Source: a virus
Length of the DNA: 37,525 nt
Virus record (IMG/VR): IMGVR_UViG_3300001473_000106
Location: 1 to 37,525 of that record
Reading direction: 5' to 3' (one strand)
Shown: piece after piece, positions 260 to 37,525 of the stretch
How positions within the stretch are numbered: position 1 is the stretch's first letter
Layout of the letters: each line of letters starts with the position of its first letter
Notes under the pieces: generated by a model
Databases searched by the model: none
Told to the model about the DNA's origin: nothing
The model's input: only the letters and a program-made list of their open reading frames with translations
Translations under genes and position numbers: made by a program

Positions 260-748
260 TCAGATTCTATTCCCACCAAAGGCGAGAGATTGATAATACC
301 AGGTGTGCAGAAAACCGAGCGGCGCACCGTCGTATCCGCCCATCATTTTCCACCAAAGCATTCGCCCAGATCGTCCGTTCCCGTCGGTAAACGGGTGAAG
401 CGTTTCGTATTCATGATGCAGCCGATAAGCGTAGCTCGGGACGCCTTCGGCGCTTTCCATCCTTGTCAGCAGATGTGCAACTTGTTCCGGAATGTGTTTG
501 CCGCCTGCCGGCGCGATGTGATTTCCGACACGCACATTTAGGCCCTCTCGGTCGCGGATCGAATGACCCGGCGCCACAGTGCCAACGAACCGTTTGAGAA
601 AATGCAAGTCGATGATCGGGTGTTCCAAGGCATCTATATGGACCTGAATTTCCTCGCTTGTCGGCTCTCGAAGAATTCCTTCGATCCGATTGCTCTCGCG
701 CACGAATTCAACAAGCTGCGCGTGGGTGGTGGTTAGATCGACAAGCAC
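260..748 (-). CDS. Fic domain protein (class II, self-inhibited)
   Basis: Fic enzymes usually transfer AMP, or another phosphate-containing group, from a nucleotide to hydroxyl side chains of target proteins. The full core motif HPFTDGNGRSGR is at residues 118-129, with the catalytic His118 and the phosphate-binding loop intact. The target-binding flap is recognisable at about residues 70-87 (LNVRVGNHIAP). An inhibitory-helix motif [S/T]xxxE[G/N] is present near the N terminus as SNRIEG (19-24), with Glu23 expected to block productive ATP binding; this makes it a class II Fic with intramolecular control. At 162 aa it is a minimal Fic domain with no DNA-binding or targeting domain. The start is GTG at 748, preceded by a GAGAGG ribosome site. 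It lies in a leftward cassette behind the tRNA. A role in host takeover or defence is inference; the target is unknown. Confidence 0.9.
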   Translation of the reverse strand: MLVDLTTTHAQLVEFVRESNRIEGILREPTSEEIQVHIDALEHPIIDLHFLKRFVGTVAPGHSIRDREGLNVRVGNHIAPAGGKHIPEQVAHLLTRMESAEGVPSYAYRLHHEYETLHPFTDGNGRSGRMLWWKMMGGYDGAPLGFLHTWYYQSLAFGGNRI

Positions 749-1011: not shown

Positions 1012-1087
1012 TGGTAGCGGGTGACGGATTTGAACCGACGATCTTCTGGTTATGAGCCAGACGAGATGACCACTTCTCCAACCCGCA
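1012..1087 (-). tRNA. tRNA-Met (anticodon CAU), phage type
   Basis: The reverse complement folds into a 76-nt cloverleaf with encoded CCA. The anticodon stem-loop is TCTGG-CTCATAA-CCAGA with anticodon CAT, the D stem is GAGA/TCTC, and the T loop is TTCAAAT. Acceptor pairs 2-7 are perfect, but the first pair is T1-T72, a mismatch at the position where initiator tRNAs also carry a mismatch (C1-A72). The three consecutive G:C pairs of initiator anticodon stems are not complete: there are two G:C pairs and one T:A. The T stem has one T50-T64 mismatch. The D arm and 5' end resemble tRNA-Met genes carried by phages rather than a host gene. Whether it is charged as initiator or elongator, or acts as a decoy, cannot be told from sequence. 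Confidence 0.88.
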
Positions 1088-1185: not shown

Positions 1186-1740
1186 ATGAAGTTCGGATAT
1201 GTCTGGAATGACCCGAGGGCGATTGACGAGGCTGAGCAACGCGACCTGCTTGACGCCGCCGGCTGCGACATGCGGCGGCTCGTCAAAGACAAATCGCCAA
1301 GCCGAGCAAACCTCGACGATCTCCTCACCATCCTGCGACCCGACGACGAAGTTGTTGTCTATCAGTCGCGATATCTCGCGGATGATGTCCTCGCCCTACT
1401 GGCCGTCTTCCATGCCGTTGCCCGCGCGCAGGCGGCTCTGCATGTCATTGATCTTGGGCGGACATCTCGCGGAGACGCGGCCATGAGCGAGATTGTCGAG
1501 GACTATGTTGAACGCCGTCGCAAGAAACAGACGTCGGCGGCGCGCGCCGCATTCAAACGCCTGCCGAAAGGCAGGAAGGGCGGGCCGAAAGCCCGTGATT
1601 TCACCGAGGATGAGATCAAGAAATTCAAGCTTTTGCGGGCCCGCAAGGCGTCATATGCTGAAATCGCGGAGGCGCTCGATACGTCAAAATCCACGGTCGG
1701 GCGCCTAGTCAAACGCTTTGCGAAAAAACGAAAGAAGTGA
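1186..1740 (+). CDS. Degenerate serine-recombinase-like DNA-binding protein
   Basis: This 184-aa protein has the length and plan of a small resolvase/invertase. It has an N-terminal Rossmann-like domain (residues 1-90, GYVWNDP ... AAGC ... EVVVYQSRYLADD ... ALHVIDLG), a basic linker helix (about 105-135) and a C-terminal helix-turn-helix (about 155-176, SYAEIAEALDTSKSTVGRLV). In active serine recombinases the first strand is followed by Tyr-x-Arg-x-Ser and the later helix carries Asp-Arg-Leu-Gly-Arg. Here the Ser-bearing loop reads GYVWNDP, and the DRLGR region reads SRYLADD. The nucleophile and the key arginines therefore appear lost. I infer a protein that still binds DNA and perhaps dimerises but cannot cut it, possibly a regulator of this small plus-strand operon. 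It could also be decayed. The start ATG follows GGAAAAAAT, a weak ribosome site. Confidence 0.75.
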   Translation: MKFGYVWNDPRAIDEAEQRDLLDAAGCDMRRLVKDKSPSRANLDDLLTILRPDDEVVVYQSRYLADDVLALLAVFHAVARAQAALHVIDLGRTSRGDAAMSEIVEDYVERRRKKQTSAARAAFKRLPKGRKGGPKARDFTEDEIKKFKLLRARKASYAEIAEALDTSKSTVGRLVKRFAKKRKK

Positions 1741-30903: not shown

Positions 30904-31022
30904 CACGCACGCGCTCCGCGGGCGGAGTTTTCCACGTAAAATTGTTCCACGTGGAACGTGGCAACGATCAGTTGTGGAAATGGATGAGAGCTATTGTCGA
31001 ATGCATTGATTTGCTTTTGCAT
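30903..31022 (-). CDS. 39-aa protein coding across a parS-like palindrome
   Basis: ATG at 31022 has AGGAAG seven bases upstream, which overlaps the previous stop region, and the TGA overlaps the next ATG. The peptide has a repeated element FHVEQ-FYVEN encoded by two near-identical 15-bp copies, the first of which is the parS-like palindrome at 30943-30958. The coding signal is therefore supported by ribosome site, coupling on both sides and gene order. Whether the peptide or the DNA is selected is open; a conserved DNA site could create the frame. The function is unknown. Confidence 0.55.
   Translation of the reverse strand: MQKQINAFDNSSHPFPQLIVATFHVEQFYVENSARGARA
30943..30958 (+). other. 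parS-like palindrome
   Basis: TGTTCCACGTGGAACG contains the perfect palindrome GTTCCACGTGGAAC (30944-30957). The bacterial chromosomal parS consensus is TGTTNCACGTGNAACA, so 15 of 16 bases match, the last base being G. A second, weaker half (TTTTCCACGTAAAATT) lies 15 bases to the left. In bacteria ParB binds such sites. Binding by host ParB or by a phage regulator is inferred. Confidence 0.55.
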
Positions 31023-31031
31023 GTCAACTTC

Positions 31032-31253
31032 CTATGGGGCGAGGAATGTAAAGAGTGCGAGTAAGGCCGAAATCGAAACCGCAACGGTCGCGAATGTTCG
31101 GCGCAAAAGATGCGGACGTATGCCCGCAATTGGAAAACCGACGGCGCAGGGCGGGGGAATTGCGGGCGCGCCGTCGGTTTTCTCTTCCGCCGGACGCGGA
31201 AATTTCAAGATTTGGCCGCGAGCGGACGATGATATCGCGCCGCGACAGGTCAT
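31032..31253 (-). CDS. Small membrane protein behind the Cro-like gene, 73 aa
   Basis: The ATG at 31253 overlaps the stop of the Cro-like gene (ATGA). The C-terminal 20 residues form a hydrophobic helix (VAVSISALLALFTFLA), preceded by Arg-Arg; the N-terminal part is Pro/Arg-rich (GQILKFPRPAEEK). This predicts a C-tail-anchored inner-membrane protein with the N-terminal two thirds in the cytoplasm. No family is recognised. A role in host takeover is possible because it lies in the immediate-early part. Confidence 0.6.
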   Translation of the reverse strand: MTCRGAISSSARGQILKFPRPAEEKTDGAPAIPPPCAVGFPIAGIRPHLLRRTFATVAVSISALLALFTFLAP

Positions 31254-31444
31254 GCGGCGTCACTCTCAAGCTCGGCCAACCTCTCGAACGCGCGCTCGAG
31301 TGTTCGAACCGTGCACTGCCTTCCGTCCTTCAGACGGCCAAGCGTTTTGCCGTCATTGAAAAGCTTTTTCGATACTGTCGAGATCGTAAGCCCGGTTTCG
31401 TCGGCGTAATTTTCGGCACGAGAAATGAGTGTTGGGATATTCAT
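31250..31444 (-). CDS. Cro-like regulator, 64 aa
   Basis: The protein reads MNIPTLISRAENYADETG and then TISTVSKKLFNDGKTL, a helix-turn-helix-like segment at about residues 11-35, followed by TVRTLERAFERLAEL. The short HTH design, the divergence from the repressor and the position at the start of the leftward operon fit a Cro analogue. The ATG at 31444 is chosen over the GTG one codon earlier. The probable -10 region ends only about ten bases before the ATG, so the mRNA may be leaderless. The gene overlaps the next by four bases. Binding specificity is not known. Confidence 0.7.
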   Translation of the reverse strand: MNIPTLISRAENYADETGLTISTVSKKLFNDGKTLGRLKDGRQCTVRTLERAFERLAELESDAA

Positions 31445-31453
31445 CACACAACC

Positions 31454-31483
31454 CTAATTGGGTTATTTCCCAATTTCTGTCAA
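31454..31483 (-). promoter_or_regulatory. Leftward early promoter
   Basis: On the minus strand a perfect TTGACA lies at 31478-31483. The -10 candidate at 31454-31459 (AATTAG, 18-base spacer) is weak, and CAATTA with a 17-base spacer is the alternative. The first operator lies in the spacer/-10 area, so bound repressor would block it. The start of transcription would be about three bases before the Cro-like ATG. The TTGACA is certain, the -10 is not. Confidence 0.55.
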
Positions 31484-31534
31484 GGGGTATATCCCAAGTG
31501 CGAATAATGCCGAATTGTGGGAATACTCCCCACA
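31457..31534 (+). promoter_or_regulatory. Immunity operators: three GGG-N6-CCC palindromes
   Basis: Three sites share GGG-N6-CCC: ATTGGG-TTATTT-CCCAAT at 31457-31474, AAGGGG-TATATCCCAA at 31482-31497, and TGTGGG-AATACTC-CCCACA at 31516-31534. The centres are 24 and 35 bases apart. A half site TTGGGATATT lies at 31432-31441 in the Cro-like gene. They fill the space between the divergent repressor and Cro-like genes, as lambda OR1-3 do. The same word occurs twice at 34379-34422. Confidence 0.75.
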
Positions 31535-32196
31535 TGTTTGACGAAGATTCGATTGGCGGCCCCGAGCGAATAGCCAAGCGGCTGCTTCCACGCTTGAGAG
31601 AGCTCGACCTTCGAAACAAGCCGACTTCGGACGAAGCGGGACTGGGCGACAGCTATGTCCGTGATATCACGCAGCGGAAAGGGGACGGCTCACCGCGAGT
31701 GCGGGACCCAGGATACACAAAGCTTCGAAAGCTAGGGGCGGTTATCGGACGCAGTCCGGCTTGGATCATGGGAGACAGAGAGAATCTCACCCCAGCGGAC
31801 ATAGCAGCCGACGCCAAAGGTACGAACGCAGACAGTAGCGCTAGATCCCTAACGTCAGTTCCTCACAACATTTCTGTAGAACAGATGGTTGAGGCAATTA
31901 CCTTCGGCGCGAACGTCCTTGGGGGATGTACAGAAACGCCTGATAAACTTGAAATACAGCTTAAAACGTTAATGATTTTTATTCGTCATGAAGACACAGA
32001 CGAACCCGAATATGAACGTATTAATCGCATCCTCGGATCCGTTGAGCAATTGCTTCTAAATGTTGTGCCAAACCCTCCTTTAGAGACTGATCCGGCTTTC
32101 TCTCGTATTCAACATGTCGCACTGCATCTTCTAGAAATCCTAGCTCTGGCGGGGTCGGCTTCCCCCGCTCCTCAGGCTTCCTTGAAAGCTGTATAA
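31534..32196 (+). CDS. Phage repressor, XRE-type HTH without S24 domain, 220 aa
   Basis: The N-terminal domain (about 1-85) contains the typical alphaproteobacterial-phage repressor HTH: KPTSDEAGLGDSYVRDITQR, then RKLGAVIGRSPAWIMG. I chose the ATG at 31534 because it starts directly before the HTH helix; the upstream ATG at 31507 would place the third operator in the coding region. No clear ribosome site precedes either. The C-terminal 130 residues are helical and Leu-rich (HVALHLLEILALAG) with no Ala-Gly cleavage motif or Ser-Lys dyad of LexA/CI peptidases, so RecA-dependent self-cleavage is not expected. It probably binds the TTGGG-N6-CCCAA sites at 31457-31534 and 34379-34422. Confidence 0.8.
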   Translation: MFDEDSIGGPERIAKRLLPRLRELDLRNKPTSDEAGLGDSYVRDITQRKGDGSPRVRDPGYTKLRKLGAVIGRSPAWIMGDRENLTPADIAADAKGTNADSSARSLTSVPHNISVEQMVEAITFGANVLGGCTETPDKLEIQLKTLMIFIRHEDTDEPEYERINRILGSVEQLLLNVVPNPPLETDPAFSRIQHVALHLLEILALAGSASPAPQASLKAV

Positions 32197-32455
32197 TTTC
32201 TGCATCATGCGGGGGAATTGTGGATAAGCGAAACAGCAAATCCACCAAAAATTTCGTGTACTGACGTTTATCCGCCAAAGTAATCCCCGGCGCGCCGGGC
32301 GCGCATCAAAATTTCGTTAACAATACGAAAGTATCGCGCGATCGCAACCATCGAGACGCTTAAGAGCGGCGAAACGTTAACGAAAATTTTACGGACACGA
32401 ATGAAACCTTAACGCGCGGCAATTTCCGCCGTTCGCGCTTAAGGAGAAATCTCTG
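32197..32455 (+). other. Non-coding gap between repressor and moron genes
   Basis: No convincing gene is seen. A 14-bp GC palindrome, CCCGGCGCGCCGGG, lies at 32286-32299 but without a T-run. AT-rich words (AAAATTTCG, CGTTAACG) are frequent near 32310-32400. AAGGAG stands eight bases before the ATG at 32456. A promoter for the moron genes may lie here; I see no clear -35/-10 pair. Confidence 0.4.
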
Positions 32456-32845
32456 ATGTCTGTCGATGCTCGAAAACTGCACGCGAAACTGCTTCGCGCC
32501 GAAAAAACGGCAATCGCCGAATCCGAAAACTTTCGCAAAGGCAAAGCCTTAACTTACGGCGGCGTTGCGGCCATTGCCGCTGGCGTGACGGCCAGCGCAA
32601 CCCAAGCAGCCGAAACACTTGGGAGTGACGCCCCTGTTGAGTGGGCTGCAAAACTGCAATCTGTAGTAGAGGCTGCGCACGAAACACCCGCGCACATGCT
32701 CGGGGCGGTTTACGAAACGCTGGTAAACGGCCATGCTGCCCTTGAGGGTGTGGCGATTGACGCCGGCGCTCGCCTTTTGCCCATGGTGAATGGTGTGCCG
32801 AAACGTCAAGTCGAATTGGTATGGACGAATTTGGGTCTATTCTAA
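32456..32845 (+). CDS. Membrane-associated protein of unknown function, 129 aa
   Basis: ATG at 32456 follows AAGGAGAAATCTCTG, a strong ribosome site. A charged N-terminal helix (ARKLHAKLLRAEKTAIAES) precedes a short Ala/Gly-rich hydrophobic segment (about 33-52, GGVAAIAAGVTASATQAAE) and an amphipathic C-terminal region. It overlaps the next gene by 25 bases, so the two are a pair. The high Ala content (20 percent or more by eye) and lack of motif leave function open. Located in the prophage accessory block between repressor and operator region, it is a moron candidate for phage exclusion or host modification. Confidence 0.6.
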   Translation: MSVDARKLHAKLLRAEKTAIAESENFRKGKALTYGGVAAIAAGVTASATQAAETLGSDAPVEWAAKLQSVVEAAHETPAHMLGAVYETLVNGHAALEGVAIDAGARLLPMVNGVPKRQVELVWTNLGLF

Positions 32846-33486
32846 ACCTAGACGCCGGCGTTCAGCAGGCCTTGCGTATTTATGGCCTGCTGGTCGGCGC
32901 AACTCTTTTGGTTTCGGTCCTTTCGAAAAGCCGCGTGATGGCCCTCTCCGGCGCCATCATTAGCACGGGGTGGTTGGTTTCGGTCCTCATTTACTTGACG
33001 CTTCGCGACAACGGCGGGCCCGCCCTCGCCCTTCAAGGGATCACCGTCGCGTTCGTATTTTACTGGATTTGGCGGGGCGCAGCAGAGCACAACGCTTGGA
33101 TTTTTCGTCACCTCTTTTGGATACATGCAGCGTATGGCGTTGCCGCCGGGTATAGACTGTTCGGGGAATTGTTTTTCCCGGACACGATGATTGCGCAATA
33201 TTATCTGCAAATGTGGCTGCAGAACCGCCTATTCGACATAGCCCTATTATATCTATTCACCGTATCTGTTGCGCGTATTTGGCTCACGCGAGAGCGATAC
33301 TTTCAGCCAAAGCCCCGCAAAACACATGAACACAAAATTCGCTCCAACGCGGGCCCGGTGTGGTTGCGGAATTTCTTCATCAGAATATCAAACGCAGACA
33401 AGCCCGACGACGAACATATTCCTTTAACGCCGGAAACGCCGAAGGAAAGCGCGAGTTTGAAGCGCCAACCAGTTTCGAAGGAGTGA
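32821..33486 (+). CDS. Polytopic membrane protein of unknown function, 221 aa
   Basis: Five hydrophobic helices are predicted by eye at about residues 18-36, 39-61, 67-86, 95-118 and 134-155, with a hydrophilic basic C-terminal tail (residues 160-221, including PKPRKTHEHKIR). Aromatic residues and Arg/His cluster at the membrane faces (FYWIWRG, FRHLFWIH). The ribosome site is weak and the start overlaps the preceding stop by 25 bases, so translation is probably coupled. Together with the 129-aa partner it could form a membrane complex. A role in superinfection exclusion is plausible but not shown. Confidence 0.65.
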   Translation: MDEFGSILNLDAGVQQALRIYGLLVGATLLVSVLSKSRVMALSGAIISTGWLVSVLIYLTLRDNGGPALALQGITVAFVFYWIWRGAAEHNAWIFRHLFWIHAAYGVAAGYRLFGELFFPDTMIAQYYLQMWLQNRLFDIALLYLFTVSVARIWLTRERYFQPKPRKTHEHKIRSNAGPVWLRNFFIRISNADKPDDEHIPLTPETPKESASLKRQPVSKE

Positions 33487-33523
33487 AATAGCGCATTGGG
33501 GCCGGCTTTTTCGATTGTGGGTT

Positions 33524-34285
33524 TTAATCTTCGCGAATTCTCATCGAGGTAAGTCCATCGAGTTCATGAGTTTCAATAATATGGGATATGTCAGTTCGAA
33601 GATCGGAAATGTCGGATGATCCGTGCAGTATTTGAATGATGTTGTCGACCGCTTCTTCTATAATTCCAGTGACCTCGTTGTACGCGGCGATGTCCGCATG
33701 TATTTTTTCGCTATTCGCACTTAAGATACTCAATAGATAAAGTAGCTCAGACCAACGCTCGTTGAACAAATCGTCAAGCGGTTGCAATATTGCAGCCGCG
33801 CGTTTTGCTTCCGCGTCGATTGCGTCATCAATACCGACTACTTCGGTCAAATTTTGTTTTGCTAACGCTAGCGATTCCGCCAAGCGGATGCGATGCTGGC
33901 TTGTTGCTTCAAGAAACCGATCATTCAATGCGATTTCGTGCTGATTGCTGAGTTCCTTAATTTTTGAATTCTTCGACGCAATTTCATCGTTCAATTCCTC
34001 TATCTCACGCGCACGATCTTCATCAAGCTTGAAAGGCGCGACGACGATGTTGAAAATAAACGTCAGCACGATGGCAGCGGACACGCCGTATGCCGCCGCT
34101 ACCCACAGCGACCACTTCTCAACAGCGAACGCCATATTGCCGCCCAGGTAAAGGGCGAAGATCGCCACCAATGTAGTGACAACGCGTATCACCCATTTCC
34201 CCAATGGTTCGGGCTTGAACGCCTTCCAGGTGTCCAATACGGATCGCCTGAACACCCGCCACTCATAGATAAGCCATTTGCGCAT
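33524..34285 (-). CDS. Membrane protein with long coiled coil, 253 aa
   Basis: Two transmembrane helices are predicted at about residues 30-53 (WVIRVVTTLVAIFALYLGG) and 60-82 (LWVAAAYGVSAAIVLTFIF), followed by a long heptad-rich region (about 88-215: EIEELNDEIASKNSKIKELS and NQHEIALNDRFLEATSQHR). The topology predicts both ends in the cytoplasm, with the coiled coil inside. It is oriented opposite to its neighbours, has lower GC than the structural genes, and lies between the moron pair and the rightward promoter. The family is not recognised. Such proteins occur as prophage exclusion or stress factors; this is inference from location. Confidence 0.65.
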   Translation of the reverse strand: MRKWLIYEWRVFRRSVLDTWKAFKPEPLGKWVIRVVTTLVAIFALYLGGNMAFAVEKWSLWVAAAYGVSAAIVLTFIFNIVVAPFKLDEDRAREIEELNDEIASKNSKIKELSNQHEIALNDRFLEATSQHRIRLAESLALAKQNLTEVVGIDDAIDAEAKRAAAILQPLDDLFNERWSELLYLLSILSANSEKIHADIAAYNEVTGIIEEAVDNIIQILHGSSDISDLRTDISHIIETHELDGLTSMRIRED

Positions 34286-34378
34286 CCGATCTTCATGAAC
34301 GGAGTCCGTGTATCGAGTCGATTCTCAGCGGTCATGCGAGGACACCTTCAAACCGGTATCGACGCAGATAGCACAGTT

Positions 34379-34422
34379 TTGGGTTTTGTCCCAATTATTT
34401 GTTGACTTGGGTTTTGTCCCAA
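34379..34422 (+). promoter_or_regulatory. Two TTGGG-N6-CCCAA operators at the rightward promoter
   Basis: Exact copies of TTGGGTTTTGTCCCAA lie at 34379-34394 and 34407-34422, 28 bases apart. The same inverted word, TTGGG-N6-CCCAA, occurs in the immunity region at 31457-31497. The second copy lies in the spacer of the promoter at 34402-34430, which fits repression by occlusion. Confidence 0.8.
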
Positions 34423-34430
34423 CTTATCGT
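34402..34430 (+). promoter_or_regulatory. Rightward early promoter TTGACT-17-TATCGT
   Basis: TTGACT at 34402-34407 and TATCGT at 34425-34430 are exactly 17 bases apart, with the operator between them. Transcription would run into the gene at 34456 and through xis/int. The -10 element has four of six consensus bases. Confidence 0.7.
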
Positions 34431-34455
34431 TTGCGCATTGGCATGGAGAACTCGA

Positions 34456-34770
34456 ATGCTCGACGATTACCGATCAGTTGCTATGAGCCCAAATGAAGAC
34501 TTGAAAAACGCCATCGCGATGCCGACACCGGCAAATGACACCGGCGAAAACATTGGCCGCCCCAACCTCCTCGCCCTAAAGGCTGCGATCGAAGAGGCCA
34601 TGATTGCGGTCGGCGACATTCGCCAGGAAGCAATTCGGCAAGCGCGAACGCTTGCAGCGGCCGGCCTCGACGACAACGAAGCCCTTCGCGCCCTCGCAAT
34701 CGCTGAACGGAACCTTGCAGCCGCCATGGGCGAAGCCACCGCCGCACTTACGAATCGAGCCCGCGCATGA
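34456..34770 (+). CDS. First gene of the rightward early operon, 104 aa
   Basis: I chose the ATG at 34456 because GGAGAA lies seven bases upstream and the promoter -10 ends 26 bases before it. The protein is helical and soluble, with a Pro/Asn-rich N-terminal part and a long C-terminal helical region (EEAMIAVGDIRQEAIRQARTL). No motif is recognised. The stop overlaps the next micro-gene (ATGA). Confidence 0.65.
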   Translation: MLDDYRSVAMSPNEDLKNAIAMPTPANDTGENIGRPNLLALKAAIEEAMIAVGDIRQEAIRQARTLAAAGLDDNEALRALAIAERNLAAAMGEATAALTNRARA

Positions 34771-34850
34771 CGTCTCTCGTTATCCGTTGGTGCGGCGCGT
34801 TCATCGTTTCCAGCATTGTATGGATCGCCACACTGGTGATTTTCTTATGA
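34767..34850 (+). CDS. 27-aa single-pass membrane micro-protein
   Basis: ATG at 34767 overlaps the previous stop and the TGA overlaps the next ATG, so it is coupled on both sides (ATGA twice). After MTSLVIRWCG a hydrophobic helix (AFIVSSIVWIATLVIFL) runs to the end. It would be an inner-membrane peptide with its short N terminus in the cytoplasm. Double coupling without gaps in an operon makes it likely to be translated. The function is unknown. Confidence 0.6.
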   Translation: MTSLVIRWCGAFIVSSIVWIATLVIFL

Positions 34851-35179
34851 AACTTATCTGCGCGATCTGCGAACAGGAGTTCGAAGCAAGATGCAGAACT
34901 TACAAATTTTGCTCTTCTCGATGCCGACGCCGAAATTCTGCAATTAAAAGACGCGAATACGTCGCAAAAAATGGCTGCAAAAGAACAGGCAACCAGAAGA
35001 AAAAGCACGCCGAGTATATGAGGAAATGGAGGGCGCAAAATCGAAAGCATGACAACGCTATGCGTCGCGCCCAATACAAAAAGCGTGCGGACCAGTATCG
35101 AACCTATAGCCGAAAATACCGCGCTCATAAAAAAATAATATTGGCGCAATTAGCAATGATGGAGAACGCCCGTGAATAG
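34847..35179 (+). CDS. Small zinc-finger protein, highly basic, 110 aa
   Basis: The N terminus CAICEQEFEARC followed by KFCSSRCRRRN (Cys5, 8, 16, 22 and 26) fits a zinc finger related to treble-clef/HNH-like domains but without the His-Asn-His catalytic set. The rest is strongly Lys/Arg/Tyr-rich and helical (KKKHAEYMRKWRAQNRK ... YRTYSRKYRAHKK). This suggests a nucleic-acid-binding protein. It starts in the ATGA overlap with the micro-protein, which fixes the start. The AT content is higher than in the structural genes. Confidence 0.65.
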   Translation: MKLICAICEQEFEARCRTYKFCSSRCRRRNSAIKRREYVAKNGCKRTGNQKKKHAEYMRKWRAQNRKHDNAMRRAQYKKRADQYRTYSRKYRAHKKIILAQLAMMENARE

Positions 35180-35828
35180 TGGAACAGCAATAGCTATTGA
35201 TGCCTTCGAAGGATCTCATGAACAAGTTTCAACCGATATCTCTTCCCTATCAAATCAAGAACTTGATCAACTATTTGCCGAGAGCCTTACCAACACCGCT
35301 AAAGGCTTGCATATAATGGCTCTCTGTTTTTCGGAAAAATTGCGTCGCGGGCTTCCAACACCAGATATTCGGTCGGGAATACTGATTTATATTCCCGCTA
35401 TTGCGCAAGGAAAACTAGCGGCGGAAGCTGTCGTAACATTCGCGGGTATGCCATCTGTGATTAATCGATTAAAGGGAATGAATTTAGAGGAACAACGGAA
35501 ATTTGCAGCCGGAAAACGCATTGAGGTTGCCGAACGTGACGAAAATGGCGAAATCGTTTTTGAAAAAAAACCTTTAGCGCTTCTAACCTGCAAGCAAGTA
35601 ATTCGCGCCATTGACTTTGGACAAGTAAGGTCACGCCCGGCTCAAATAAACTCGTTAAAAAACGAAGTTATCACGACTCGCCGGCCCCCGAAACAAAAGC
35701 GCAAAGTAAAAATTTCCGTCGATAAAGATACTGGCACGCTCATTGTCCACGGAATAAAAGTGGAGGTCGTTGCGCTTGAGTCCTCGTTGATAAAGCTCGG
35801 CTACCGTCTCGAAAAAATAGACCAATGA
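35172..35828 (+). CDS. Hypothetical protein, 218 aa, AT-rich gene
   Basis: The start is GTG at 35172, preceded by GGAGAA at about eight bases, and overlaps the end of the zinc-finger gene. The N-terminal half is helical and polar (TDISSLSNQELDQLFAESL), the middle has beta-like segments (GILIYIPAIAQGKLAAEA), and the C terminus contains KISVDKDTGTLIVHGIKVEV, a beta hairpin. There is no membrane span. The gene is clearly richer in A/T than the surrounding phage, suggesting recent acquisition. The function is unknown; the position suggests an early accessory role. Confidence 0.65.
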   Translation: MNSGTAIAIDAFEGSHEQVSTDISSLSNQELDQLFAESLTNTAKGLHIMALCFSEKLRRGLPTPDIRSGILIYIPAIAQGKLAAEAVVTFAGMPSVINRLKGMNLEEQRKFAAGKRIEVAERDENGEIVFEKKPLALLTCKQVIRAIDFGQVRSRPAQINSLKNEVITTRRPPKQKRKVKISVDKDTGTLIVHGIKVEVVALESSLIKLGYRLEKIDQ

Positions 35829-36145
35829 TCGAATATCTCGAAGACGAACAACTTTGGCGCATTGCGTGCGACGTCGACGGATGCGAGGCGGAACGGCTTG
35901 ACACGCGTTTACCCGCCCGCCCCGACGATGCTTTGAAATTCATGCGCCGCGCCGCTGTTTATTGGGGCTGGCGAGACGGCGTCGACGGTCAGAAAACTAT
36001 TCATCTTTGTCCTGATCATGCCGCGATCAAAGATCGTGATGACGCCGATGCACGCTTCGCGAAATTCTGGCGGGACAAGGTTGTTCCGAAAATCGATGCG
36101 GCGCGCGCGGCGCGTCACGAAAGAGAAAGGTTAGGCCTTCGATGA
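35825..36145 (+). CDS. Hypothetical protein with CPDH zinc-like motif, 106 aa
   Basis: The ATG overlaps the previous stop (ATGA). Cys15 and Cys20 (CDVDGCE) with Cys62 and His65 (CPDH) could form one zinc site. A helical, Arg-rich C terminus (KIDAARAARHERERLGLR) follows. The family is not recognised, but small proteins with a CDxxGC ... CPDH pattern are frequent in alphaproteobacterial phages. It is coupled to the next gene by ATGA. Confidence 0.65.
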   Translation: MIEYLEDEQLWRIACDVDGCEAERLDTRLPARPDDALKFMRRAAVYWGWRDGVDGQKTIHLCPDHAAIKDRDDADARFAKFWRDKVVPKIDAARAARHERERLGLR

Positions 36146-36357
36146 GCGGTTTTATTCCTCGGCATAAGGACTTTCAGCTCGCGCATCGTTGCGCCGAAAC
36201 CATTAATTTTGAATGGGCGCAACGGGGCGTGCGCGCAAATGCGCGCCTGAATAGCAAAGCGGAAATTCTGTCGGACCTAACGCCGGCAATGATTCGCGTG
36301 CCGCCGCCGGTTATGAAAGCGATCAACATGCTCGGGCCTGAAGGGAAAAGCGAATGA
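36142..36357 (+). CDS. Hypothetical protein, 71 aa
   Basis: The ATG overlaps the previous stop and the stop overlaps the next start. The product is basic and helical in the first half (HKDFQLAHRCAETINFEWAQRGVRAN), with a proline-rich segment (IRVPPPVM) near the end. No motif is recognised. Its coupling to the excisionase-like gene places it in the integration module. Confidence 0.6.
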   Translation: MSGFIPRHKDFQLAHRCAETINFEWAQRGVRANARLNSKAEILSDLTPAMIRVPPPVMKAINMLGPEGKSE

Positions 36358-36686
36358 CAGCGCCAACAGTATGCAGCCCGTCACAACTAGCCGCCCGATG
36401 GCAGATTTCGCGGGAGGTTGTGTATAAAAAGGTGAAAACTGGGGAATACCCGTCCTTGCCGGGGCGTCCCGTGCGCATACCGTTGGCCTTTGTAGAAAGT
36501 ATGGAGGCCGAAGCATGCGTCTCGTCAGACATCGCGGCAAGTGGGCCGTCCGCGTCAACGGCCAAAGATACTCAACCGGATTCGAAGCCACGCCGGAGAA
36601 CCGGACCGCCGCGGAAGGGCGAGGGCATGAAATTCACGCCAGGGAAAGCCGCCGGCACCGTGGTGAAGTTTGCGGCGACATCGTAG
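36354..36686 (+). CDS. Putative excisionase, HTH, 110 aa
   Basis: Residues 8-52 (SPSQLAARWQISREVVYKKV ... PSLPGRPVRIPLAFVESM) form the MerR/excisionase-like HTH (HTH_17 type) that binds DNA near attP and directs excision. The position directly upstream of the integrase is standard. The frame continues for 57 codons into the integrase gene, giving a 172-base overlap; the C-terminal half (SGPSASTAKDTQPDSKPRRR) is low-complexity and probably non-essential. The ATG overlaps the previous stop. No test of which gene tolerates the overlap is possible here. Confidence 0.75.
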   Translation: MTAPTVCSPSQLAARWQISREVVYKKVKTGEYPSLPGRPVRIPLAFVESMEAEACVSSDIAASGPSASTAKDTQPDSKPRRRTGPPRKGEGMKFTPGKAAGTVVKFAATS

Positions 36687-37525
36687 CCGCCTATTTCGCC
36701 GACATGCCGTTTCGAACGGTTCCGAAGACGCCATCGTCAGGCGCTCGGGACGCTGCGCGGCGGGTCCTCGAATCTTTCTCCGACCTGACCGACGCTGACA
36801 TCACCCGCGAGCATTGCCGGCAATACACCGCAATGCGCCGCGACCAGGGCTATTCCGACGGCACCATTCGCAAGGATCTGTCGACGCTGCGCGCCGCGCT
36901 GCGATGGAACGATCCGCAAAGCCCTGCCGTTTTCGAGATGCCGGCGATGCCGCCGCCGGAGGACCGATGGCTGCGCCCCGAAGAGATAGAAGCCCTGCGC
37001 GCCGCGGCATTGTCGCGCCCACACGCAGCGATCTTCATTGAACTGGCGATATGCACGGGCGGACGCAAAGAGGCCATTCTCGGGCTGACATGGCAAACCC
37101 ATATCGATTTTGACGCACGCCGCATCTGGCTCGGCTTCAAGGAAGGCGGCAAGAAACGGGCGACCGTCCCCATGACCGAAACCTGCCGAAACGCGCTCAT
37201 CGCGACGCAGACCCGATCAATTACGCCCTTCGTCGTCGAGTATAACGGCAAGCGCGTCGGAAACATTCGAAGGGCGCTGCGCGCCGTCTATGACGATGCG
37301 GGGATCGAGGACGTTCGATATCCTGCCCATGTGCTGCGCCATACGGCCGGCACGATCATGGCCAATGCTGGCGTGCCGATGTTCGAAATTTCCCGGCGCC
37401 TTGGCCACTCCTCAATCCGCGTCACCGAACAGACCTACGCCCACACCCATCCCGACTATATGAGCGCGTCAACGGAAGCGCTTGAAAGGGTCGGGCCCTC
37501 GGTACACCCGTACCGAACACCGTGA
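36515..37525 (+). CDS. int: Tyrosine recombinase integrase, 336 aa
   Basis: The ATG at 36515 has GGAGG seven bases upstream, deciding the start although it lies 172 bases inside the excisionase frame. The N-terminal arm-binding region (RHRGKWAVRVNGQRYSTGF), the core-binding helices (about 77-130) and the catalytic domain are all present: Arg184 (ICTGGRKEAI), Lys213/214, His272-x-x-Arg275 (HVLRHTAGT), His298 (RRLGHSS) and nucleophile Tyr308 (TEQTYAH). It would carry out integration and, with the excisionase, excision. The stop codon is the last base triplet of the window, so attP or attR must lie just outside. Rightward transcription comes from the promoter at 34402. Confidence 0.95.
   Translation: MRLVRHRGKWAVRVNGQRYSTGFEATPENRTAAEGRGHEIHARESRRHRGEVCGDIVAAYFADMPFRTVPKTPSSGARDAARRVLESFSDLTDADITREHCRQYTAMRRDQGYSDGTIRKDLSTLRAALRWNDPQSPAVFEMPAMPPPEDRWLRPEEIEALRAAALSRPHAAIFIELAICTGGRKEAILGLTWQTHIDFDARRIWLGFKEGGKKRATVPMTETCRNALIATQTRSITPFVVEYNGKRVGNIRRALRAVYDDAGIEDVRYPAHVLRHTAGTIMANAGVPMFEISRRLGHSSIRVTEQTYAHTHPDYMSASTEALERVGPSVHPYRTP

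What the first reader, a model, noticed from the sequence alone, without database searches (positions are those of the whole stretch)
32456..34285. Three-gene membrane moron block of unknown function
Two overlapping plus-strand membrane protein genes and an opposite-strand coiled-coil membrane protein lie between the repressor and the second operator region, a usual location for genes expressed in lysogens. None is recognised. A membrane-based superinfection exclusion or anti-phage system is a reasonable hypothesis, so this is the best candidate for an undescribed system here.
Basis: inference. Interest (0 to 1): 0.6.

Follow-up and report, generated by a model that had tools for sequence, protein, structure and literature searches.

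The report
Swappable cargo slot beside phage repressor
Three genes without recognisable relatives sit in a spot next to a virus's dormancy switch where related viruses carry other genes or none, so they are probably optional cargo; two of them are laid out like the lambda genes that block rival viruses, but that function is unproven.

Summary
The three ORFs exist at the stated coordinates. They fill the interval between the repressor gene (stop 32196) and a second operator pair (34379, 34407) of a lambda-like immunity region. Three perfect TTGGGN6CCCAA sites were found against 0.03 expected. Six IMG/VR immunity regions with the same operators and Cro-like family hold different things in this interval: nothing in L186 and L202 (17 and 109 bp), one YbjQ-domain gene in L188, L191 and L204, two unrelated ORFs in L203. 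L202 and L203 are 92-93% identical on both sides and differ only there. So the block is cargo in a variable slot, as rexAB is in lambda.

Corrections: A (129 aa) is not a supported membrane protein; B has 4-5 TM segments; C has two plus a helical cytoplasmic part. The operators overlap the only promoter-like match found upstream of C, so C may be silent in a lysogen. A, B and C have no detected relative and no match to RexA, RexB or SieB models, which do recognise the lambda proteins.

Best guess: A-B is a lysogen-expressed exclusion pair that works like RexAB without being homologous (about 0.4). Slot assignment: about 0.9.

The parts
31250..31447 (-). Cro-like gene (65 aa)
   Evidence: phrog_7669 5e-10; relatives in L186, L188, L191, L202, L203 and L204
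31458..31532 (.). OR-like operator triplet (31458-31473 perfect; 31482-31497 and 31517-31532 with two mismatches)
31534..32196 (+). Putative immunity repressor (220 aa from ATG 31534; start codon inferred)
   Evidence: Position between OR and slot; weak hits only (phrog_2328 0.1, DicA model 0.084); blastp to the L186 repressor E 0.023
32192..32197 (+). Candidate -10 (TATAAT) that could serve A-B
   Evidence: 9 of 12 consensus match; not evidence of function
32456..32845 (+). Gene A, 129 aa, probably soluble, orphan
32821..33486 (+). Gene B, 221 aa, 4-5 TM, basic cytoplasmic tail, orphan
33524..34285 (-). Gene C, 253 aa, two TM plus helical cytoplasmic part, orphan
34379..34422 (.). OL-like operator pair (34379-34394 and 34407-34422, both perfect)
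   Evidence: same pair, 29 bp apart, in six related loci
34402..34430 (+). Candidate pL (TTGACT-17-TATCGT) toward the integrase; TTGAC conserved in place in 6 of 7 OL sequences
34394..34422 (-). Candidate promoter for C (TTGGGA-17-AATAAT) inside the operators
   Evidence: 9 of 12 consensus match; not evidence of function
34456..34770 (+). First gene of the pL-type operon that leads to the integrase (start inferred)
   Evidence: codon score above all 40 shadow ORFs

Best explanation
The block is the contents of a variable accessory slot in a lambda-like immunity region, lying between the repressor gene and the second (OL) operator pair (slot assignment about 0.9; shown by comparison). Inferred function: A and B, co-oriented with the repressor and overlapping, are made in the lysogen, either by read-through from the repressor promoter or from a promoter at the repressor stop, and act as a two-part exclusion system. 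Small soluble A would sense or gate; polytopic B would be the membrane effector, depolarising the membrane or blocking DNA entry when another phage infects. This is RexAB-like in layout but not homologous. C is probably a separate gene: a two-TM helical protein whose likely promoter is covered by repressor-bound operators, so it would be made on derepression or early infection rather than in the quiet lysogen. Shown: ORFs, operators, slot variability, lack of detected homologs. Inferred: expression, the A-B partnership, exclusion, C regulation.
For: Operators: three perfect sites against 0.03 expected, 0 of 100 shuffles reach three. Slot length in relatives: 17 bp (L186), 109 (L202), 635 (L188; L191 also has the YbjQ gene there), 661 (L204), 917 (L203); window 2182. 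L202 and L203 are 92-93% identical on both flanks; the difference (83 against 891 bp) begins at the repressor stop codon and ends about 27 bp past the operators. Lambda has cI-rexA-rexB-OL in the same order, and that interval is described as a common accessory-gene site (PMC7067206, passages). Repressor-downstream pairs of one cytoplasmic and one polytopic membrane protein exclude phages in lambda and P. putida (PMC11077077 and PMC12894663, passages); a similar pair, Sbash gp30/31, does so from another position (PMC6426596, passages). B is polytopic and A soluble by the same method that returns lambda RexB as 4 TM and RexA without a strong TM segment.
Against: No sequence or structural link to any exclusion protein: Pfam and PADLOC RexA/RexB models recognise the lambda proteins but not A or B. 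A (129 aa) is less than half of RexA. B fits 5 TM better than 4 by the positive-inside rule (17 against 1 K/R), unlike RexB. Slot cargo in relatives (YbjQ; an exported-looking 118-aa protein) has no known defence role, so the slot is not defence-specific. The repressor-A gap is 259 nt without a convincing promoter, so expression in the lysogen is unproven. Single-sequence AlphaFold models are poor (mean pLDDT 54 and 57).
Confidence: 0.4

Rival explanations
1. A-B is lysogenic-conversion cargo that alters the host envelope or physiology, with no role against phages.
For: The only recognisable cargo in sister slots is a YbjQ-domain (putative metal-binding) gene in L188, L191 and L204; L203 carries an exported-looking 118-aa protein.
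Against: Described occupants of the lambda-type interval include several exclusion genes (passages).
Confidence: 0.3
2. A-B tunes the phage's own lysis-lysogeny switch (as proposed for RexA and for Hex of phage 434); any exclusion is a side effect.
For: Position in the immunity region; RexA is reported to stabilise the lytic state and Hex to reduce induction (PMC11077077 and PMC3564112, passages).
Against: Two relatives have no gene there (L186, L202), so the function is dispensable; a polytopic membrane protein is an unusual switch component.
Confidence: 0.15
3. All three genes form one membrane complex made in the lysogen.
For: Adjacency; B and C are membrane proteins.
Against: C is antisense and its only promoter-like match lies under the operators; A is not a membrane protein.
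Confidence: 0.08
4. One or more ORFs (A most likely) are not real genes, or are decaying remnants.
For: Length and codon score of A and B are within the range of spurious ORFs; no homologs.
Against: Best of six frames, ribosome-binding site for A, tight non-overlapping tiling, TM pattern of B; the known gene 35172 scores no better.
Confidence: 0.07

Closest known systems
Lambda rexA-rexB (and RexABpp of Pseudomonas putida prophage P1)
   Same: Two co-oriented genes downstream of the immunity repressor (in lambda also before OL); one soluble, one polytopic inner-membrane protein (PMC12894663, passages)
   Different: No sequence match to RexA/RexB profiles; A is 129 aa against 279; B is probably 5 TM and 221 aa against 4 TM and 144; a third, antisense gene is present; an exclusion phenotype is untested
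Sbash gp30/gp31, the CarolAnn gp44 system, Butters gp30/gp31
   Same: Prophage-encoded cytoplasmic plus membrane pairs (PMC6426596 and PMC7542560, passages; PMC6426606, search listing only)
   Different: Those membrane partners have 4 TM; the cytoplasmic partners are reported with a DUF4747 motif, and those purified were 337-372 aa (PMC11077077, passage); A shows no such domain at E<=1 in Pfam
Hex of phage 434; bstA of prophage BTP1
   Same: Accessory gene downstream of the repressor (PMC3564112 and PMC7067206, passages)
   Different: Single genes; no similarity to A, B or C was tested directly
Repressor-OL slot of the six related IMG/VR phages found here (L186, L188, L191, L202, L203, L204)
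   Same: Same operator motif, OL pair, Cro-like family and gene order
   Different: Slot empty, or holding a YbjQ gene, or two other ORFs unrelated to A, B and C
Lambda SieB (for C)
   Same: Two N-terminal TM segments and a cytoplasmic remainder
   Different: No profile match (against control); different location and orientation

Membership tests
Lambda-type immunity-region accessory ('moron') slot | Gene(s) lie between the repressor and the OL/pL operator-promoter | tested here: met
   Repressor stop 32196, OL 34379-34422; operators significant
Lambda-type immunity-region accessory ('moron') slot | Content varies or is absent among related phages with conserved flanks | tested here: met
   Six related regions: two empty, three with YbjQ, one with two other ORFs; L202/L203 flanks 92-93% identical
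Lambda-type immunity-region accessory ('moron') slot | Expressed in the lysogen | not testable with these tools
   No transcriptome; only consensus promoter matches
RexAB exclusion system | Soluble partner belongs to the RexA family (PF15969 / PADLOC RexA) | tested here: not met
   A: no match; lambda RexA control matches
RexAB exclusion system | Membrane partner belongs to the RexB family (PF15968 / PADLOC RexB), 4 TM | tested here: not met
   B: no match, 4-5 TM with 5 preferred; lambda RexB control matches
RexAB exclusion system | Gene pair co-oriented with and downstream of the repressor | tested here: met
RexAB exclusion system | Excludes other phages through loss of membrane potential | not testable with these tools
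   Needs plating and membrane-potential assays
SieB superinfection exclusion (for C) | Match to PF14163 | tested here: not met
   C no match; lambda SieB control 9e-30
Known anti-phage defence families (PADLOC-DB 2.0.0) | Profile match for A, B or C | tested here: not met
   0 families each at E<=10

The most novel reading that the evidence does not exclude
A-B is an undescribed exclusion system: a small soluble sensor plus a five-TM channel, unrelated to RexAB, carried in a lambda-like repressor-OL cargo slot of a little-sampled phage group, with C as a derepression-controlled membrane protein that complements it at the moment of infection. The slot itself would then be a place to harvest further unknown systems by searching for the TTGGGN6CCCAA operator pair.
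Probability: 0.27. Interest if true: 0.6.

Novelty: new member of a known kind. Interest (0 to 1): 0.4.

Why it matters
It turns a vague 'unknown membrane genes' note into a testable cargo slot with defined borders. In phages recognised by their operators alone, whatever lies between the repressor stop and the OL pair looks replaceable, and such slots are where lambda-like phages keep exclusion genes. If A-B excludes phages, it would be a Rex-like solution reached with unrelated proteins. The prediction that C is under repressor control also warns against testing the three genes as one constitutive unit.

Tried and rejected
Homolog hunts that found nothing: C, B and A in IMG/VR by back-translated peptides, C in genome contigs, tblastn of A, B and C in phage records and of B and C in plasmids. 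In whole genomes: B in 7 genomes of one order, B and C in 397 genomes of the order of G001, A in 385, B in 250 and C in 240 genomes of the class. Hits at E 5e-4 to 0.01 for B and C were inspected where a frame was readable and look like SecF, MFS and AraC-type proteins aligned through membrane segments (recognition from memory), so they were rejected as chance; the B hit in G511 (39 residues, one stop) and the C hit in a 2020-aa frame of G615 were not followed up.

PHROG hits for C (phrog_1009 E 7e-4, phrog_28931 E 2.5e-3) have no named function and were not counted as homology. Foldseek with the low-confidence models gave no match at E<=0.001 and is not evidence either way. TerL, portal and integrase searches showed only a divergent phage (TerL at best 39%) and did not identify the host. 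The prophage stretches L172 and L173, chosen for TerL, share head and packaging genes but no lysogeny genes with the window. Rfam: nothing in 31000-37525. Considered and rejected: C as an Rz-like spanin (phrog_4719 E 0.22; not in the lysis cassette).

Rows set aside in the slot comparison: the two operator-pair scans gave 17 distinct stretches (13, 7, 3 shared). Six were kept for having the Cro-like family. The ten others (L187, L189, L190, L192-L198) gave no Cro match at E<=0.01; L199 gave none in its record at E<=1. L188 and L191 are one lineage, L202 and L203 another, so the six are about four independent cases.

Full report
What the window is. The window is one whole IMG/VR virus record of 37,525 bases. 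Its left two thirds carry leftward late genes: lysozyme, tail proteins, portal and major head protein and terminase. A replication-initiation gene follows, and at the right end lies a tyrosine integrase. The nearest terminases found are 39% identical. The host is not established. A gene just right of the block, 35172-35828, has relatives in Sinorhizobium and Rhizobium phages, which only hints at an alphaproteobacterial host.

The three ORFs. A and B overlap by 25 nt. Codon usage trained on 15 phage genes makes each the best of six frames, but A and B score within the range of spurious shadow ORFs (13 and 14 of 40 score as well; C 4 of 40), as do the repressor and gene 35172 in this module. Coding status therefore rests mainly on layout, ribosome-binding site and membrane pattern. 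A is not a supported membrane protein (1403 of 2000 shuffles reach its hydrophobic maximum). B has four clear TM segments and a fifth that the positive-inside rule favours (17 against 1 K/R). C has two TM segments; heptad periodicity is significant only in residues 153-222. Single-sequence AlphaFold models agree on all-helical B and C but are of low confidence.

The immunity region. TTGGGN6CCCAA occurs perfectly three times in the window (31458, 34379, 34407) against 0.03 expected, with none of 100 shuffles reaching three. Two degenerate copies at 31482 and 31517 complete an OR-like triplet between the Cro-like gene and the putative repressor; taken alone over the window, two-mismatch copies are no more frequent than chance (10 found, 15 expected), so it is their clustering that counts. 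A TTGACA on the minus strand lies in OR in the direction of the Cro-like gene. In the 34379-34422 pair a TTGACT-17-TATCGT match reads toward the integrase. The order cro, OR, repressor, A, B, (C), OL is the lambda order cro, OR, cI, rexA, rexB, OL. The repressor itself is supported by position and weak hits only.

Relatives found through the operators. Because protein searches failed, I searched IMG/VR for the operator pair: 17 distinct stretches. Six belong to immunity regions with the same Cro-like family and the same OL layout (spacing 29 bp, 28 in the window). TTGAC sits at the same place in 6 of 7 OL sequences, the window included. The distance from repressor stop to OL, and its content, are: L186 17 bp, none; L202 109 bp, none; L188 635 bp, one YbjQ-domain gene; L191 the same gene; L204 661 bp, one YbjQ-domain gene; L203 917 bp, a 113-aa ORF co-oriented with the repressor and a 118-aa ORF antisense to it; window 2182 bp, A, B and C. 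L202 and L203 are 92-93% identical in DNA on both sides, and what differs (83 against 891 bp) starts at the repressor stop codon and ends about 27 bp beyond the operators. This is the strongest result: the interval is a cargo slot with sharp borders. L203 also repeats the window's pattern of co-oriented genes next to the repressor and an antisense gene next to OL. The slot ORFs of the relatives show no similarity to A, B or C beyond chance (best E 0.61). The Cro-like proteins are only 23-29% identical to the window's, so these are distant relatives.

How it probably works. The equivalent interval in lambdoid prophages is described as a common site of accessory loci such as rexAB (PMC7067206, passages). 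Genes there are often carried on the repressor transcript: rexAB (PMC11077077, passages) and hex (PMC3564112, passages). RexABpp of P. putida was found to be a defence pair in such a place (PMC12894663, passages). Known pairs consist of a cytoplasmic protein and a 4-TM protein proposed to depolarise the membrane (PMC6426596 and PMC7542560, passages). A (soluble) and B (polytopic) fit that layout, which is why I commit to an exclusion pair at about 0.4. They are not members of the RexAB family: the RexA and RexB models recognise the lambda proteins but not A or B. Against defence: the only recognisable cargo in sister slots is YbjQ, a putative metal-binding domain, so non-defence cargo is a serious rival (0.3).

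C is different. It is antisense, its start is 94 nt from the operators, and the only sigma-70-like match found upstream of it (TTGGGA-17-AATAAT; none other at 8 of 12 or better within 165 nt) lies inside the operator pair. This rests on a 9-of-12 consensus match, in a region where such matches are about as frequent as in shuffles (4 found, 2.8 expected), and is unproven. A TATAAT overlapping the repressor stop (32192) could serve A-B independently, also unproven.

Novelty. Position and layout are a known kind; the proteins have no detected relatives in what was searched. I therefore call it a new member of a known kind (immunity-region accessory cargo), with an unproven chance of being a new exclusion system.

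Noticed in passing
window 260-748 (-): Fic-domain-like protein near the left end (PADLOC PDC-S04 9e-11, SoFic 1.2e-9); could itself be a defence or lysogenic-conversion gene.
   Followed up: no
window 1186-1740 (+): Resolvase N-terminal-like domain plus helix-turn-helix (Pfam Resolvase 2.4e-5, HTH_23 7e-7).
   Followed up: no
window 1012-1087 (-): tRNA-Met (CAT) in an otherwise phage-like stretch.
   Followed up: no
window 34847-35179 and 35172-35828 (+): Adjacent gene pair that may recur in Rhizobium phage RHph_X2_26 (35172 relative E 1.4e-13, 34847 relative only E 0.055); 35172 (phrog_28375) also has a relative in Sinorhizobium phage phiM12.
   Followed up: partly
window 32308-32389: Inverted repeat of 14-nt arms in the 259-nt repressor-A gap, possibly a regulator site.
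   Followed up: no
L188 4537-5076, L191 207-746, L204 1375-1899: YbjQ-domain gene with an N-terminal cysteine-containing stretch as phage cargo next to the repressor, in two lineages about 53% identical.
   Followed up: partly
L203 1064-1420 (+) and 1454-1795 (-): Two slot ORFs without Pfam match, absent from the 92-93% identical sister L202.
   Followed up: partly
L187, L190, L193, L195, L196: An identical operator-like pair (TTGGGACGTTACCCAA or its complement, 43 bp apart) recurs in five metagenomic viral contigs; in L187 and L196, the two that were read, it lies inside coding frames.
   Followed up: no
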